Shown piece after piece: positions 38,108-50,234 of a DNA stretch of 64,000 nucleotides. Source of the stretch: Asterochloris sp. CNOR1 (Eukaryota > Chlorophyta > Trebouxiophyceae > Trebouxiales > Trebouxiaceae); contig OZ017750.1 of assembly GCA_963969365.1 (NCBI GenBank), forward strand, positions 2,790,001-2,854,000, written 5' to 3'. Below the pieces are notes generated by a model that did no database searches, had not been told where the DNA came from, and was given only the letters and a program-made list of their open reading frames with translations. How positions within the stretch are numbered: the stretch's first letter is position 1; the number at the start of each line of letters is the position of its first letter. The translations under genes and the position numbers were made by a program.

Positions 38108-38140
38108 GACCTATTATAAGCCATGTAACACCCTGCGACA
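38094..38140. repeat. Left element end: hairpin plus inverted repeat
   Basis: GTCGA (38096-38100) and TCGAC (38106-38110) form a perfect 5-bp stem with loop AAGAC. Next come GACCTAT and the 21-bp repeat 38120-38140, whose inverted partner is at 45946-45966. Confidence 0.6.
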
Positions 38141-38297
38141 AGGCGTGAAACTTTAAGGCCTGCTTCGCGACAGAACTCTGTCATGGTGCTCATGCCCACC
38201 GGAAGACATTTTGAAAGTGTTTGAAGTTCATATCAATGAGCTTAGGCCTGTGTGCCTACTTAGAGCTTTTCAATCTCACTCCATAGGAAAGCAGGCT

Positions 38298-39374
38298 ATG
38301 ATGAAGTCTCAGCGAGGCAGCGGCAAGAGGCAAGACCGCAACTTTGAAATTGTTGTCAACCACATCACCATCAATGAAGACCAGCTGCCTCAGGTCTCGC
38401 GGCAGAGCATGGCGGCTCTGAAGGATGTCTTTGGACACAACATCAAGAAGTACTCAGGCACTCTTCACCACAAGACAGGCAACGAGCATGTACATCTCCT
38501 TGTGATGTCTGCAGCTCCTAAGACCAAGAGCCCTGTCAAAGCCAGTATTGCTGCCTCCATGGCACTCATCTTTGGCACACAAACTGACTCTGTGGAGGTC
38601 AAGTTGTTCAATGAGTTGAAAGCAGATGCTGGACCAGCTCATGGCCTGAGGGGGCTTGGCGACTACAGGTCGCTGTACGTGAACAACAATGACCATGAGA
38701 ATCACCGCCCAAAGGATCCTGAGCACAGGACGGTGGAGTTCATGTGCGGAGGAGAGTGGGAGATCTCGCATGGAGGCACCAGAATTGGTGCCGGGCGGCA
38801 AGGCCCGGTGCAGGTGGCCACAGCAGCTATCAAGGCAGGAACTCCAGAGTTGCAATGCAAGACGTATGAGGAGTTCGAGCGTCTGCTGAAAGCCGCCGCA
38901 GAGAGTGTGGGTTGCACAACGAGCGCCTTGCCAAGGGTGTTGGCCAAGACCTCTTTTGGCACAGTGCCAAAGCGCAAGGAAGGCAACCTGATTCGCAATC
39001 CTGCCTATGATGAGGAGGAGTTCAAGGCCCTCCCAAAGAAGCAGCAGACTATCCAGCGGAAGCGCTCCATGAAGTACCTGCAAGGGCCCAGCGGAAGCCT
39101 GCGAGAGGAGCCACTGGTGGTTGCTCATCAATTCTTAGAGGCGCACCCTCCTGACCTTTATCGATTCAGGCTCCTTGAGCCTGTCAGGAAGCTACAATCT
39201 GGATGTGGCTACCTTTCAGTTGCAAAGTTGAAGCAGCTCTATGAGGAGGCATTTATCAATCTGTTCAAGGACTACCCACCTCCTGAATGGACGTCTGGTC
39301 GTGCGCCAGCAAGGGCATGTGTCAGTTACAATCTGCCCGCAGCAGTTATTGCTGATGTGATGAAGGCCAGATGA
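38298..39374 (+). CDS. Putative HUH endonuclease (Rep-like), intronless, 358 aa
   Basis: Single uninterrupted frame; the first in-frame ATG is 38298 (a second follows directly), and the open frame extends back to 38211 without an ATG. The key feature is EHVHLLVM at residues 63-70, a His-hydrophobe-His motif after a beta-strand-like segment (KKYSGTLHHKTGN). HUH enzymes use this to bind the metal for DNA nicking. A Tyr pair follows about 60 residues later (GDYRSLYVNNND, Y123 and Y127), a plausible place for the catalytic Tyr. The C-terminal half is basic and charged (KRKEGNLIRNPAYDEEEFKALPKK) with no helicase motifs, so it is not a Helitron-type Rep-helicase. Lack of introns in an intron-dense genome suggests recent mobile origin. 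The family is not proven; HUH-Y1 transposons of algae (Replitrons) are the closest known idea. Confidence 0.5.
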   Translation: MMKSQRGSGKRQDRNFEIVVNHITINEDQLPQVSRQSMAALKDVFGHNIKKYSGTLHHKTGNEHVHLLVMSAAPKTKSPVKASIAASMALIFGTQTDSVEVKLFNELKADAGPAHGLRGLGDYRSLYVNNNDHENHRPKDPEHRTVEFMCGGEWEISHGGTRIGAGRQGPVQVATAAIKAGTPELQCKTYEEFERLLKAAAESVGCTTSALPRVLAKTSFGTVPKRKEGNLIRNPAYDEEEFKALPKKQQTIQRKRSMKYLQGPSGSLREEPLVVAHQFLEAHPPDLYRFRLLEPVRKLQSGCGYLSVAKLKQLYEEAFINLFKDYPPPEWTSGRAPARACVSYNLPAAVIADVMKAR

Positions 39375-39802
39375 TGCAAGCTTGTTTACAAGATCATGAA
39401 ATTGTCTGAATCACCATGCCACAGCACAGGTGTGGAAGGTGCGTCCACGTACCACATCGTATGATTTTGTAACAGATGCACAGATTGCGCGAGTGCAGCC
39501 CTTTTCAAGCCCCCAGGAGGTCCTCTTGTGCCACCATGGATTCAAGTGTAGCCAATGCCAGGCCCAATTAGCCACCATATGTGTTGGTCAGGCCAGCTCC
39601 CTTAGGTTGATGCCTTCAAGTGTAGTTCAAGTGTGGAGGACCTTTGTTGTGCAGTGGCTAGCCAGAAGTATTTGATTGGCCCAGAGGAAGGGTTACACGG
39701 CAATGCAGATCTTCGATTCATGTAGACCAAGAGTGTTTCAAGTGTATTTTGTCAGGAGGCAAGCCTTGAAGGCTTGCCCCCCAAGATAACATGTGGTTTT
39801 GT

Positions 39803-39888
39803 GGGCTGACATCTCATTTCTGGGTGGCATTTGACACCGCTCAGTGAGATGTGACTTTCAGCAGTTCAATGTGACTTGCTGAGCTTGG
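39803..39888. repeat. Diverged direct repeat, copy 1
   Basis: It resembles 40763-40860: shared blocks include TTGACACCGCTCA versus GTTACACTGCTCA and TGACTTTCAGCAG in both, in the same order and spacing apart from small gaps. Flanking sequence (CTTGAAGGCTTGCC / CCTCAAGGGGCTTGCC) is also similar. Confidence 0.55.
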
Positions 39889-40762
39889 AAACTGGCACAC
39901 GGAGACTGAATTCAGGAAGGGGAGACCAGCCATTTCAAAAGTTTTTGACAAGTCTCATGAAACATCATGCAGAAACGTCAGCAGAACAGGGGGCAATGTT
40001 GGGCTGTAGCCACACAAGGGTCCAGACAGAGTTTGGTTCCTCTGCTGCATCGCTGCAGAGAGGCAAAGTCTCACAGGTGGCAGCTCCCCTGACCAGTGGG
40101 TCAAGTGGGAGGGAGCCATGAGAGCTCTCCTGATGGGGCATCAAAGCACTGACACAAAGGACACACAGGACACATCAAAACAACCCCAGCATACTCAGCA
40201 AGCTCACGAGTCTGCTCCAGGCACCCAGGCAGATTGCATGCATGCCAGCAGCTGCGGCCCTGGCAGACTGTGTCCTTTGTGTCTTTGTGTCTCAATGAGA
40301 TGTAGAGATGTCTTGGGAGGTGGCACATGGATGGCCTCATGCCGATCTGTGAAGGGCAGGATTGGCCAAAGCCACCTGGCTTTCCCCATTTCACCAGGGC
40401 AACACTGCTGCAGCATGTGATGACAAAAGGCATGTTGCCTTCCTGACCTTTGAGCATCTTGCTGGTCCTCCCTGAGACAATGTTGTGTTGCAGCTGGAAA
40501 GGGACCTGCCTTTGACTGAGCCTTCTTTGTGCCCCGCAGGCCCTGCTCAGGGCCTTGGCCTGCAATGCTGCCACTTAAACCACTTCAAGCTGATATTTCA
40601 GGCTAGTAAAGTGTAACCATTTGCTGAGTGCCACTCAGTCCAGTCTCTGAGGTGCTTCCAAAGAGAATTGTGACGCTAGGTATGTAAACCAAGCCTGGTA
40701 TCAAGGCAAGTTTGACAGAACAGGCCTCAAGGGGCTTGCCCTGGTGGGAGGCATGTGTGTCT

Positions 40763-40860
40763 GTGGAGTGATTTCTCACTTTTTGAATGATGTGTTACAC
40801 TGCTCAACACTGTTCAAACATGACTTTCAGCAGTGAAATCGTGACCTGTGCAGGTTCTGG
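40763..40860. repeat. Diverged direct repeat, copy 2
   Basis: This is the partner of 39803-39888; the two copies lie about 1 kb apart between the HUH gene and the recombinase. They could be old subterminal sequences or binding sites. Confidence 0.55.
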
Positions 40861-40896
40861 CGGTAGGAATGGTCAATTAAACAATTAAAGGCTTGC

Positions 40897-43884
40897 TCAG
40901 CCACTCTGCTTACGCTTGCCAAGCAGCTTGGAGTCACTGCTGTACCTGCTGCATAGCTGCTGCAGTGAGCTGGTTGTCCTGGTGGGGGGGATGCGCTCAC
41001 GTTCCATCTCTAAAGCCCCGACAACAGCAGCCATGGTGCTTCCCAAGCCAGCCATGCGGGTTTCAATCTCAGCAGCAAGGCCGTTCTTGAATCTTGAGAA
41101 GGCCGTGCTGCTGGCTCTTGCTTCCTTCTTGCTGCCATGCCACCTGCGGAAGTCTGAAGGCACTGCTGAGATCTTGGAGAACGCCTCAAATGCTTCTGGC
41201 ACTGTTTGAAATTCTGAAAGCTTCCAGACCTGCAGCTCATAACAAGGGGAAGTACAGTCTGACCAGTACACAGGCGCTCAAGCTGAAAGGCAATTCGACT
41301 GCACACCTGCTTCTCTAACAAAAAGGAGTCCCTCTCATCCGAGGCGCTCAGCGCACTGAGGGACTGAGGCGGCAGAGTAATGCCATAGCTGGCCTGTGAA
41401 GCCAGAGGCACCCATGGGATCGGTTTGGCTGATGCTGGGGGCTGGACACCGGAAAGAGGCACCTGAGGCAGCATCACCACCGGGGCCAGAGGCGTGGCCT
41501 CCTTTCCACCCAGCGTCTTGAAGAAGAAAGCCTGCGACATGGAAGGGCAAAGGTTCAGAGCAATGCATGTCTGACTACAACACCTAGGGCCGCAGCGCTC
41601 ACCGTTGGGTTGGTGAACAACAAATTCCTGTCGCTGAGAACCGCCTCAGCAGCAACGTGTTTGTCCCACGTCTCCTGCCGCAGCTGCTTGCCTACAGCAC
41701 TCCGCAGAAGGCGACTGGCCGCTGGCGGGATGGTGCGAAGCCACTGGTCCCCATATGAATCAATTCTCAAGCTGGCATTCTGCACAAACACGTGCCGCAG
41801 GTGGTCGATGGCCCTCAAGGGCGCCAGCAAAGGATGTGCAGGGTGGCATCGCATGCCAGCTTGGCGCAGTAGCACCGTCAAGCCTGGGATGATGCGGTCC
41901 AGCACATCCTCCTCAGCCTGCAGAAGACAATCAGATCAGTCCCCCCAATTTTGGTGATTTGTGTGAGAAGCACTGGCACTGCAGTGACCTTACCATGAAC
42001 TCAGCCTGACCCAAACGATGATTCTCGTGCCACTCCCGTCCCCAACCAGCCAGCCTGTGGGCTGTGTCTGGGTCAAAGATGCAGTACAGGTCTGTGGTGT
42101 CGGACTCATGCCTGCAAGGCAAAACACTGGTCAGCTGAGGACGATACTGTTCAGAATGCACAGCATGGCCTGAGTTGCCTACCTCGCCGCCATCTTGATC
42201 TCCGCTTTGTTGATGCCCACGCTCTTAGCCGCCTCCACACCATGCTTCTTAAATTTGTGGCTGACCTCCCCTTTAGCTGAGTACCCATCAAGCCTGCCAC
42301 AGGGCACGCCTGCAGAGTAGCAAGCCACAGATGTCACCAATAGCCATGTCCGAAAGCTGCGGCATTAACGCACTGGCTCACCAGCAAGTTCAAAAGCCTG
42401 CCGAAGGTGAACGTTGAGAGTCTCTCCACTCATGGGCTGGTTCCCCTGCATGCTAGGGGCGGCAACAATGAACTTGGCCAGATCCTCAAGTTTGATGCCC
42501 TGTGGAAGGTGGCGACAGCCAGGTCGGCAAGCGCTGCCTGAGGACAGATGCGATGGTCCCGGTACCTGTGGCAGGGGAGGCATTATGACTGAGAAGACAC
42601 TGCAGCACACTGCCCAACTGTGACTGTCCTGACAGCATGAATGCGCATACCTGACGACACCAGGAATATCCACCTGCCCAGGTTTCACAGTCTTCCCTTG
42701 CATGCTACCAAAGAGGACTGCCACAGAGGGCACTGGGCTGACATTATCCTGCGTCCTCAGTGCCAGGCAGCTCCAGGGAAGTTTGCGCAGGTCATCAGAG
42801 CGGCCCAGTGTGGCTGGCATGAAAGTCATTGCCATCCTCAGCAGGTAGGTCCATTGCCACTGCTTCTGCTGGAAAACTGTTAGCAGGGACTGGCGAAGCT
42901 GCCCTGCGCTCAGTGCGGCATCCACCTGCAGATGCAAGCAACAAGCTGGGGTTAGATACGCCATCATTCTGTTGGCACAAGACGCTCTGACCAGGCTGGT
43001 ACCTACCTGAGCTGCCACTTGCGCGTTGAGGTTCTCAGCCTGCATCTCCCTGCCACGTGCACGGACCAAGTCCCTGACCGCCTGGATCTCCAGGGGTGCG
43101 GGTACATCTGAGTTGATGCGGCCCTGTAAGTATTGCTCTCTGCGGACCTCCTTGAGGTGGCATAGATAATCACTGCATGCACCAGGCCAAGGGTTGGGAA
43201 GGGTGGGACATGAGCACAGCTCAGACACAGCAGTGGAGGGGCCTCTCACCCCACGCTGCTGAATGAGTAGCGAGCACCATTCTGCTGCACTGCCTCATCC
43301 ACAAGCCACATCGAGAACTCAAGAATCTTGGCCTGAGACATGAGGTCGCCATCAGGGTATCGGTGCGCCTCCTGCTCACAGTATCTCTGCAGGATCACAT
43401 GCGTGTGAGTGACATGGCCTTGGAAGCCTTAAGGGGGCCATAAGAACAGGAGTAAAGGCCATGCAGCGCCTACCCTCCAGAGCTTGGCAGCTGATCTTTC
43501 AGCCTGGACTGTGTTCTGTGGCTTAGCTGCACCATGACGGGCATTGATGAGCTGTGTGAGCTGTAGGATACGAGCTTCCTCCTCAGGAGTGTTTGGCATT
43601 GCTGCTGCCAAGCCAACTGCTGCGTCTGAGACTGGTGCTCCATTCTGCTGGTCCAAAGTCTCTAAACTGTGCACACCAGGGGCAGAGGGCGGCACTGGCT
43701 GGAGATCATCCACCACTCCAGACAGGTGTCTGCAGGCTTGATCAATGGCCGCTCTGAGGGCAGGGGGGCTGTTTGGGGAGCAGCTGGCACGCAGTTGTGC
43801 TGTGTAGTTGTCAGCTAGCCCCAGGCTGATAACATGGTTGATGTAGCTGCTGTACTCAGCAGATGGCACCTGGTAGTGCTGCAT
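40897..43884 (-). CDS. Crypton-like tyrosine recombinase, ten exons, with one apparent frameshift
   Basis: Exons on the minus strand: 43474-43884, 43250-43386, 43007-43172, 42651-42925, 42382-42565, 42183-42309, 41994-42111, 41603-41917, 41307-41531, 40897-41229. The start ATG is at 43884; an earlier in-frame start would have to be non-ATG. The catalytic core is recognisable: the first Arg in ATLGRSDDLRKLPWSCLAL, the beta-hairpin Lys in GSMQGKTVKPGQ, then YRDHRICPQAALADLAV, then VSHKFKKHGVEAAKSVG (HxxK where HxxR is usual), and the Tyr in HESDTTDLYCIF. A C-terminal coiled region ends in basic KLLGKRKQSG. Between ADLAV and GIKLEDLAKF (about 42500-42520) the frame changes by one base with no usable intron, so this copy is probably inactive or the assembly has an indel. 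It belongs to the element at 38108-45985 and is divergent from the protease gene. Confidence 0.72.
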
Positions 43885-44186
43885 GAAGGTCGATCTAGGG
43901 CACTTTGGCGCGCTAGGGTTTCTTGACCTAGTACTTAGGTCGGCAGGCAATATCAGGCGTATGTTTGTAGGCGAACCCTCCAGATAGCGGCAAGTGATAC
44001 CCGGTAAGCCACACCTGTTCACAAACGCACCTGCAACCAAATTGTGCGGGCATGAAGGACAGCTGTGCCAAGCACCAGATTGCCTGTCTGCTCAGCTGAG
44101 CGCGCTTTCTTGTTGTTAGCCATTACTTCTAGCTGAAGAGACACTGACCATCCCTCTGTCTTTGTTGCCTGCAGCCCCCATAAAAA
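43885..44186. promoter_or_regulatory. Divergent intergenic region of the recombinase/protease pair
   Basis: 302 bp separate the recombinase and protease start codons, suggesting shared control. Just before the protease ATG the sequence reads CCATAAAAAATGG. No known operator is recognised. Confidence 0.4.
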
Positions 44187-45695
44187 ATGGCAGAACCAAC
44201 TTCCTCATCGCTGGATGACCTCAAGAAGCGGCTTGACGAGTGCAGCAGGCAGATAGGAGAAGAGCTTGGCAAGCGGCCCGTCAATGACACCCGGGTCTCG
44301 CAGTATCAGAAGTACGCAGACATCCTGTTGGAGCAGATCAGGCTGGCTTCAGGTGAGGCTCAGTATCATGAGGTCTATGCTGTGCTGTCAGACATCCCGG
44401 GTTTTATGCCAGCTTTAAGCCACAGGTGAAGTCTGCAGGTGCTGTGGTCCACCTGCCCACGCTTCGCTGTTTGCAGCTATTTTGTGTGTGCAAACACTTG
44501 CAATTGCTGGGCTGCATGTCATGGTCAGGGCCACAGTGCAGTCATGCGCTGACAGAGGTCAAGTCCACAGGGGAAGTTTTGCTCAAGGGTCGACCAACCG
44601 CCTGTGTTCACAACACAGTGTGTAAGCTGGACAAGGCATGGTATCTTGTGAGGGGTGAGACATCAGTCACTGCACGGAGGTGGGCCCTATGCAGTGCACC
44701 CAACCTGCACTCAGCTGAGTCCGGCGGCACACCCTGTACTAGGGCAAATACTCAATCTCACTCACATGTTGATGTGCTTGTGGGTCTGCTGCTCAACAGA
44801 ATCAACATTGCTCTGCAGCTGGGAGGGGTACAGCTGACCTGCTGCTGTCTGAGGAAGCTCTGGACAAGGTGTATCGCAGCATCTTCCTGGTGCTTGATCA
44901 GGATGGGGATTGCGTGGGCGGTGGCTTCTTCTATGCGCCTGGGAAGGCCGTGACAGCAGACCACAACTTGCTGCCTGCACAGGGGTAAGCTGAGGTTGGC
45001 CAATCAGTCCGTTGCTGTGCTGAAGTAGCACCTGCCATGCTGCTGCAAGCAAAATGGCAGTCCCTGTTGCCTCAGTTGCCTCACCAATTGCAGCTGAAGA
45101 TGCGAGAACAGGGTTGATCCCTTGCAGATGTTGCTTTTCATCAGCAGCAATTTGATGGGATGACCTCACACTCTGCAGGAGTGGCAACACAATGATGATT
45201 CGCACCACCAAAGCCACAATCCCAGTTCTGATTCGAGAGAGAAACACACCCTATGACTATGCCCTTCTTGAGTGTGGAGCTGACGTTCAACAGGATCACC
45301 TGGTCGTTGCCAGCCCTTCAGAGGTTCTGATGGGCAGAGCGTTGACGCTGTGCGCCTTTCAGATTGGTCTCCGCAAGGACTTGCCAGAGTGGGGCAAGGG
45401 CGCTGATGTCGACATGGGCCTGTTGCAGGCCAGGGGCTGCAAGCTGTCTAAGCAAAGGCACCATCTGCTGTATGATGTCTCAAGCGTGCCTGGCGATTCC
45501 GGGTGTGCACTGGTCTTGTATGACGGCAAGGTTGTGGGAATGCACCTGGCCGCGGCAAACACTCTCGTAGATAACCTGGATCGTGCAAAAGAACTTGATG
45601 CTCAGATGAACGAGGTTGCAGAGAGCATCGCATCATTCGCCGCCGGCACTTCACAGCTGGGGATCGCCCTGCTGTGCCATGCCTTCGTAAAGTGA
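44187..45695 (+). CDS. Trypsin-like serine protease (282 aa)
   Basis: Exons 44187-44352, 44819-44984 and 45179-45695 (TGA) give 283 codons with consistent phases. The N-terminal ~70 residues are a charged helix (DDLKKRLDECSRQIGEELGK). The chymotrypsin-fold domain then has all three catalytic residues: His104 in VTADHNLL, Asp137 in PYDYALLEC, and Ser218 in VPGDSGCALVLYDGKVVGMH. There is no signal peptide or membrane segment, so the protease should act inside the cell. It lies inside the candidate mobile element, divergent from the recombinase, and 170 bp before the right-end tandem repeats. It may process an element protein or be captured host cargo; neither is shown. Frames are intact, unlike the recombinase. 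Confidence 0.75.
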
Positions 45696-45866
45696 ATGTG
45701 ACATCAATGCTGCATGTACATCAAATTCCACCTTCACTCCATGCTCACAAAAGTTTGAGGGACTTATCACATGCAATTTTAGGACACCAAAAATTGCTGC
45801 CTCACAACCAAGATGGCATTAACACTGATCACTGACAACAGGCATGTCTGAACCTTCTGTGATAAA

Positions 45867-45977
45867 TGACATGTCGCGGGGCGTCCGATGGCCTGTGATA
45901 ACTTGACATGTTGCGGGGTGTCACACGGCCTGTGATATAATGGAATGTTGCAGGGTGTCACATGGCCTGTGATATAA
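45867..45977. repeat. 37-bp tandem repeat, three copies
   Basis: Units are 45867-45903, 45904-45940 and 45941-45977. Each reads TG(A/G)(C/A)ATGT(C/T)GC then a GG-rich core and GGCCTGTGATA. Unit 3 contains the inverted partner of the left-end repeat. The copies diverge slightly, the outermost two being closest. Confidence 0.85.
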
Positions 45978-45989
45978 TGACCTATATCA
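45970..45989. repeat. Right element end hairpin
   Basis: TGATAT (45970-45975) pairs with ATATCA (45984-45989) around loop AATGACCT, just after the third tandem copy. The 7-mer GACCTAT shared with the left end sits in this hairpin. Confidence 0.5.
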
Positions 45990-50164: not shown

Positions 50165-50234
50165 GTTTCACGCTTTTGACGCAGGGTGTTACATGGCTTT
50201 ACTTTAGGTCTGTGGATCCCTCTGCCCAACAAAT

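What the first reader, a model, noticed from the sequence alone, without database searches (positions are those of the whole stretch)
38108..45985. Possible new composite mobile element: HUH protein, tyrosine recombinase and trypsin-like protease within shared ends
Three genes of different mobility-related types lie between inverted repeats (21 bp, 19 identical) and small terminal hairpins, with the same 7-mer (GACCTAT) at both edges. HUH endonucleases and tyrosine recombinases are normally alternative mobilisation machines. An element carrying both, plus an intact serine protease, would be a type I do not know described. The HUH assignment and the element limits are inference.
Basis: partly seen in the sequence, partly recalled or inferred. 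Interest (0 to 1): 0.85.

Follow-up and report, generated by a model that had tools for sequence, protein, structure and literature searches.

The report
Cargo-swapping algal transposon with two recombinases
This is one copy of a family of mobile DNA elements, in what is probably a green alga, that usually pair a gene resembling DNA-nicking enzymes with a tyrosine-recombinase gene and carry a replaceable passenger gene (here a protease), a combination I have not found described for mobile elements of cells with nuclei.

Summary
The unnamed 56.4-Mb genome holds 81 loci of the HUH-like gene; 67 have a tyrosine-recombinase (YR) gene facing them within 10 kb (same-strand control 1). Both ends carry the 6-bp direct repeat GACCTA, exact or one mismatch in the 19 end pairs tabulated. 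The flanks of sister copy L010 match an empty paralogous site with one GACCTA (right side only about 45 bp), so HUH, YR and cargo insert as one unit, Crypton-like. The protease is cargo, not a fixed third part: L021 is 99.5-99.9% identical to L018 and L020 over 1,500 bp, then unrelated from 7-9 bp beyond an internal palindrome GACCTA-N5-TAGGTC. Other cargos encode kinase-like proteins (4 of 6 scanned), recalling Crinkler-type effectors. HUH and YR assignments rest on motifs and sub-threshold profiles; the only three MobL hits in the genome are members of this family. Most likely: a YR cargo transposon with an HUH-like partner, integrating at GACCTA and exchanging cargo at an internal site. Mechanism and HUH chemistry are inferred. 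New variant of a known kind.

The parts
38108..38113 (+). Left copy of the 6-bp direct repeat GACCTA (left edge, putative YR core)
38108..38197 (+). Left end of the element, with one unit of the subterminal inverted repeat (38120-38140)
   Evidence: 47 pattern matches genome-wide, backward-read control 0; start of the shared sequence in copies
38298..39374 (+). HUH-like (Rep/relaxase-like) gene; frame open from 38211, most likely start 38298 (inferred); HVH and Tyr127 invariant in the 8 aligned copies
39865..40732. Extra intergenic stretch (limits approximate) present in the window copy and in L010 and L011, absent from the other HUH-bearing copies compared
40900..43884 (-). Tyrosine recombinase gene, ten exons (43884-43474, 43386-43249, 43171-43007, 42925-42650, 42564-42380, 42307-42182, 42110-41994, 41917-41603, 41531-about 41300, 41229-40900; edges approximate); frameshift in exon 5 in this copy
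43904..43943 (.). Conserved junction site: TTTGGCGCGCTAGGGTTT stretch plus palindrome GACCTA-N5-TAGGTC (43925-43941); end of the constant half, start of cargo
   Evidence: 57 pattern matches, backward-read control 0; cargo homology breaks here; fold no better than shuffles (z -0.46)
44187..45695 (+). Cargo gene: short N-terminal header (exon 44187-44351) plus trypsin-like serine protease (exons about 44820-44985 and 45180-45692), His, Asp and GDSG motifs present by eye
   Evidence: header and promoter region shared with L018 and L020
45865..45985 (+). Right end: about three tandem units of about 37 bp, inverted relative to the left end
45979..45984 (+). Right copy of the 6-bp direct repeat GACCTA (right edge)

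Best explanation
38108-45985 is one copy of a family of cargo-carrying tyrosine-recombinase transposons. Shown by comparison: (1) the constant half is an HUH-like gene, a YR gene and conserved ends; (2) the unit sits between 6-bp GACCTA direct repeats and, for one sister copy, entered a site that already holds one GACCTA; (3) the variable half, between an internal palindrome containing GACCTA and the right-end repeats, holds different genes in different copies, the protease being the one here. Inferred: the YR excises and integrates the unit through a circle by recombination between GACCTA cores (Crypton mode); the HUH-like protein nicks the element, probably at the tandem repeats of the right end, to copy it by a rolling circle; and the YR (or homologous recombination) swaps cargo at the internal core, much as an integron does. 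Cargo genes are probably Crinkler/CR-type effector genes (header plus protease, kinase or nuclease) that serve element or host in biological conflict.
For: HUH-YR linkage 67 of 81 loci (to 66 different YR loci), controls 1 (same strand, downstream) and 7 (upstream, any strand). Right end downstream of 51 of 82 YR loci, controls 4, 0, 3, and of 45 of 81 HUH loci, controls 5, 3, 6. Empty site: L010 flanks joined with one core match C14:1988 kb at 92% over 354 columns across the junction, about 300 bp on the left and about 45 bp on the right. A second unoccupied paralogue (L042) is homologous to two right flanks starting exactly at GACCTA (96% over 354 bp). Right-end repeats run straight into a left end, sharing one GACCTA, in L057 and L058 and at L021. 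The base after GACCTA is A/T in 17 of 19 pairs. Cargo changes next to the palindrome behind YR regions 99.5-99.9% identical over 1,500 bp (L018 and L020 against L021). dN/dS: HUH 0.25-0.49 in 20 of 21 non-independent pairs (one young pair 0.72); YR exons 1, 4 and 8 0.16-0.22 in the 3 pairs among L014, L017 and L018. NDC10_II on the YR, E 0.063 and 0.029, with R, H, H and Y at a spacing like that of Cre (recalled). Relaxase profiles on the HUH region: MobL 0.0065, MobP2 0.025 and MobP3 0.15; MobL's only three hits in the genome are in this family.
Against: All HUH and YR profile scores are below curated cut-offs, and unrelated models score about as well in the same scans (DUF4630 0.039; two unrelated NCBIfam models 0.041 and 0.058). 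MobL matched only 1 of 8 aligned members at E up to 10, and only positions 118-199 of its 383 are matched. AlphaFold2 on the single HUH sequence failed (pLDDT 33.7). NDC10_II found nothing in a six-frame genome search (the gene is split by introns and no control genome rang). YR box II reads HxxK, not HxxR, in every copy listed. 14 of 81 HUH loci have no YR and 16 of 82 YR loci no HUH; these were not examined one by one. The right end of one copy (L034, behind L013) ends in GACATG, not GACCTA. Of 19 flank pairs searched, one gave an empty site. The right-end pattern itself contained GACCTA, so its presence there is partly selected; the left-end pattern did not. No related genome was available, so nothing is shown about activity, circles or spread.
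Confidence: 0.68

Rival explanations
1. A Crypton-type element (the YR does all the moving) in which the first gene is an accessory protein, not an HUH nuclease; the HVH is fortuitous.
For: Ends and insertion behave as in Cryptons (6-bp direct repeats; Crypton passages). HUH profile scores are sub-threshold and no better than some unrelated models; no fold was obtained.
Against: Three relaxase profiles hit the same stretch containing HVH; the three genome-wide MobL hits all fall in this family; HVH and Tyr127 are invariant in the 8 aligned copies.
Confidence: 0.25
2. An HUH transposon (Replitron-like) moves the unit and the YR is a resolvase or passenger.
For: Tandem repeats at the right end could be Rep-binding iterons; 5 of 20 right ends read end in TAATATGAC plus CTA or GTA, one base from a known Rep nick nonanucleotide as I recall it (the window's own right end does not). 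Replitrons occur in green algae and have direct terminal repeats of 5-11 bp (PMC10741241 passage).
Against: Insertion at a pre-existing 6-bp core fits site-specific recombination; the YR exons tested show lower dN/dS than the HUH gene (different pairs); described Replitrons are 0.9-4 kb and this unit is larger.
Confidence: 0.15
3. Nested unrelated elements: a HUH+YR transposon ending at 43950 that happens to lie next to a host protease gene, and right ends that belong to something else.
For: DNA homology between copies stops near 43950 in most comparisons, which I first took for the element's end.
Against: Right-end repeats follow in the same orientation downstream of 51 of 82 YR loci (controls 4, 0, 3), and the L010 empty site needs the far right end, not 43950.
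Confidence: 0.05
4. Cargo exchange is by ordinary homologous recombination or gene conversion in the short conserved junction, not by the YR.
For: Copies share about 40 bp there, enough for template switching.
Against: The break lies beside a core-like GACCTA palindrome, and the left flank of L011 is another copy's YR promoter up to within 4 bp of that palindrome, suggesting insertion there; the eight bases before L011's left end are not a clean match.
Confidence: 0.4

Closest known systems
Crypton DNA transposons (CryptonF, Ndc10-related YR)
   Same: YR gene and 6-bp terminal direct repeats thought to be the recombination substrate (passages of PMC3212892)
   Different: Second HUH-like gene, subterminal inverted tandem repeats, exchangeable cargo, internal core palindrome
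Starship elements of fungi
   Same: Cargo-bearing unit moved by a YR (search listings and abstract beginnings only; details recalled)
Replitrons
   Same: HUH-like gene, green algae among the hosts, short direct terminal repeats (PMC10741241 passage)
   Different: YR partner, larger, subterminal inverted repeats, cargo; Craig 2023 itself not held, so the proteins were not compared
Bacterial integrative mobilizable elements and integrons
   Same: Relaxase plus YR on one element; cargo exchanged next to a recombination site (recalled)
   Different: Eukaryotic, spliced YR gene; no HUH relative found in plasmids or, by two short peptide patterns, in prokaryote genomes
Crinkler/CR-type effectors
   Same: Header plus protease, kinase or nuclease domains; such proteins include trypsin and REase-kinase types and helical headers (PMC5289972 passages)
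   Different: Here as variable cargo of a transposon; headers match no Pfam profile

Membership tests
Crypton | 4-6 bp direct repeats at both termini, present once at the empty site | tested here: met
   19 of 19 tabulated end pairs GACCTA or one mismatch, 15 exact on the left and 16 on the right; one further right end, L034, ends in GACATG; empty site for L010
Crypton | YR with R-HxxR-H-Y catalytic set (recalled) | tested here: inconclusive
   R, H, H, Y at the expected spacing; box II Arg is Lys; NDC10_II sub-threshold
Crypton | No terminal inverted repeats (passage) | tested here: not met
   21-bp inverted repeat, 19 identical, near the ends
Crypton | Circular intermediate | not testable with these tools
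   needs reads or PCR
Starship | Captain YR with DUF3435 at one end, cargo following (recalled) | tested here: not met
   only NDC10_II among Pfam matches at E up to 10; the YR gene is internal
Replitron | HUH endonuclease with catalytic Tyr | tested here: inconclusive
   HVH and Tyr127 invariant in 8 aligned copies; profiles weak; no fold
Replitron | Sequence homology to known Replitron proteins | not tested
   no reference sequences held
MobL/MobP relaxase | Profile score above curated cut-off | tested here: not met
   best 20.7 bits against a cut-off of 28.5; only profile positions 118-199 of 383 matched
CR-type effector (cargo) | Header plus enzymatic toxin-type domain | tested here: inconclusive
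   Trypsin_2 in the window; Pfam kinase-type matches in 4 of the 6 other cargos scanned, one more by motif only; cargo of L020 and L021 not scanned; headers match no profile

The most novel reading that the evidence does not exclude
A new class of eukaryotic integrative element that divides the work between two machines, HUH rolling-circle copying and YR site-specific integration at GACCTA, and that exchanges effector genes at an internal core site: a eukaryotic counterpart of an integrative mobilizable element combined with an integron.
Probability: 0.33. Interest if true: 0.92.

Novelty: new variant of a known kind. Interest (0 to 1): 0.73.

Why it matters
If right, HUH-type and tyrosine recombinases, usually alternatives in eukaryotic transposons, form a stable partnership here, and conflict-type genes (protease, kinase, perhaps nuclease) travel and are exchanged as cassettes in an alga. 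Several near-identical copies with different cargo and an empty site make circles, core use and cargo exchange directly testable.

Tried and rejected
First taken as a HUH+YR element ending at 43950, with the protease as host flank (note); dropped after right-end repeats were found downstream of many copies and after the empty site. Junction sites with a non-YR left neighbour (5 of the 12 read: L061, L065, L067, L068, L070) looked like a second swap; two of the five were read further (L073 and L074) and hold, by eye, LINE-like AP-endonuclease frames (L073 also RT-like), so nested retrotransposons; the other three were not followed. L042 looked like a full empty site; only its right side is clean.

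Structure: AlphaFold2 on the single HUH sequence was useless, so no fold search was run. Open frames across joined flanks proved too common in this GC-rich DNA to serve as evidence. Besides the L010 hit, two hits span a joined junction (L021 flanks at C1:754 kb; L030 flanks at C11:2285 kb), but these are right ends of elements, because those left flanks resemble right-end repeats; not counted as empty sites. Viral contigs gave no relative of HUH or YR and prokaryote genomes none of HUH, all by a few short peptide patterns; plasmids none of HUH; PDB sequences none of HUH or YR.

Dropped rows: the three window rows of the YR dN/dS table came from wrong exon coordinates and are not used. Genome-wide counts are lower bounds. 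Of the 67 linked HUH loci, two share one YR locus. The pair L013/L034 was left out of the end table because its right end does not end in GACCTA. End pairs were assigned by order along the contig; L056/L055, 22 kb apart, may enclose a nested copy. The flank-base table was typed by hand; the upstream base of L060 was mistyped there (T, not C), which leaves 18 of 19 T or C.

In print: the listings showed no title or abstract beginning that describes a eukaryotic element with HUH and YR together; the papers were not read through. Craig 2023 (Replitrons) and Zhang 2016 (CR effectors) were not held.

Full report
Setting. The window is bases 2790001-2854000 of contig C5 of an unnamed 56.4-Mb genome in 21 contigs. 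The three contig ends read begin with CCCTAAA repeats, and the YR gene has GT-AG introns, which fits a plant-lineage alga; the organism was not identified.

The HUH-like ORF is open, the protease gene has three exons with a full-length Trypsin_2 match above the cut-off, and the middle gene is a ten-exon tyrosine-recombinase-like gene on the minus strand. In the window copy that gene is frameshifted in exon 5; the copy in L018 is open for 765 codons.

The family. A DNA search gave 69 matches; a protein search with the HUH-like protein gave 124 matches, which merge to 81 loci. In 67 of the 81 a YR exon lies downstream on the opposite strand within 10 kb, 40 of them at 2.1-2.5 kb; the 67 lead to 66 YR loci. 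The same-strand control is 1 and the upstream control 7. Left-end and junction patterns occur 47 and 57 times, backward-read controls 0. The right-end pattern occurs 71 times, control 0, and a right end follows 51 of 82 YR loci in the same orientation (controls 4, 0, 3) and 45 of 81 HUH loci (controls 5, 3, 6). These are lower bounds.

The ends are the ends of one inserted unit. In the 19 end pairs tabulated both edges read GACCTA or differ by one base: exact in 15 of 19 left and 16 of 19 right ends. The right-end pattern contained GACCTA, so the right-hand figure is partly selected; the left-end pattern did not contain it. One further copy, L013, has a right end (L034) closing in GACATG. The flanks of the sister copy L010, 96% identical to the window over the constant half, joined with one core, match a paralogous site on the same contig over 354 columns at 92%, across the junction. 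The left side matches for 300 bp, the right side for only about 45 bp. That site carries GACCTA once. A second unoccupied paralogue, L042, is homologous to two right flanks from exactly GACCTA onward (96% over 354 bp), but its left side is not a clean match, so it supports only the right boundary. Of 19 joined flank pairs searched (7, 12), only the L010 pair gave an empty site. Some copies sit at GACCTA of other copies: right-end repeats run directly into a left end in L057 and L058 and at L021. The left flank of L011 is another copy's YR promoter to within 4 bp of the palindrome, followed by eight bases that are not a clean match. The base after GACCTA is A or T in 17 of 19 pairs, the base before it T or C in 18 of 19 (L012 and L021 have paralogous right flanks, so not all are independent).

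Cargo. Between the internal palindrome and the right end lie 2.0-4.4 kb in the nine copies read. Over the 1,500 bp before the palindrome L018 and L020 are 99.5%, L018 and L021 99.5%, L020 and L021 99.9% identical. L021 shares nothing contiguous with the other two beyond 7-9 bp after the palindrome; L018 and L020 go on with a related header region at about 75% for some 350 bp and then part. The window shares that promoter and header with both at about 65-76%. Pfam scans of ten single frames from six other cargos found kinase-type matches in four (L012, L016, C15, C12), in two of them (L012, C15) above a cut-off; L015 has a kinase motif by eye only, L018 a nuclease-like motif by eye only. Frames from L020 and L021 were not scanned. 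This set of domains (trypsin, kinase with REase, helical headers) is described for CR effectors (PMC5289972, passages only). That the cargos are such effectors is inference.

How it most likely works. Shown: pairing, ends, core, one empty site, cargo replacement, and dN/dS below 0.5 in nearly all pairs tested of both genes (HUH 20 of 21 pairs, one at 0.72; YR exons 1, 4 and 8 in 3 of 3 pairs used). Inferred: integration by the YR through a GACCTA core, as proposed for Cryptons (PMC3212892, passages only); nicking and rolling-circle copying by the HUH-like protein; cargo exchange by YR action at the palindrome. The stretch TTTGGCGCGCTAGGGTTT beside the palindrome resembles E2F and telo-box promoter motifs (recalled), so the site may also simply be a shared two-way promoter.

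Weak points. The HUH assignment rests on HVH, one invariant Tyr and sub-threshold relaxase profiles. Unrelated models score about as well in the same scans, only 1 of 8 members matches MobL, the damaged copy L031 reads HVY, there is no usable model and no PDB hit. For it speaks that MobL's only three hits in the whole genome fall in this family. The YR has Lys where box II usually has Arg (rule recalled), and NDC10_II is sub-threshold and silent in the six-frame search. Five of 20 right ends read contain TAATATGAC at their edge, close to a Rep nonanucleotide as I recall it; this may be chance.

Place among known things. By action it is closest to a Crypton, by cargo to a Starship, by its first gene to a Replitron or relaxase; membership of each fails or is untested in at least one defining feature (table). 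The listings showed no printed account of HUH and YR together in a eukaryotic element, but the key Replitron paper could not be read.

Noticed in passing
window 50175-50213 (-): A further left-end-type sequence (GACCTAAAGTAAAGCCATGTAACACCCTGCG) on the minus strand, 4.2 kb beyond the element; no HUH locus or right end was listed with it.
   Followed up: partly
L073 (C12:510000-511900), L074 (C17:1909900-1911800): LINE-like reading frames (AP-endonuclease, in L073 also RT, by eye) lie directly against the conserved TTTGGCGCGC stretch of the junction site, as if a LINE targets it.
   Followed up: partly
window 39865-40732: About 0.85 kb present in the window copy, L010 and L011 but not in the other HUH-bearing copies compared; a unit inside it (40082-40325) recurs several times in L028.
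   Followed up: no
window 43904-43921: TTTGGCGCGCTAGGGTTT resembles an E2F site plus a telo-box (recalled), suggesting S-phase expression of YR and cargo.
   Followed up: no
left-end family with AAGTCAGG (L028, L029, L030): A sister subfamily with a diverged left end (AAGTCAGGTAACACCCTGCGACAC) and about 4.5-12 kb from left end to palindrome also carries HUH and YR.
   Followed up: partly
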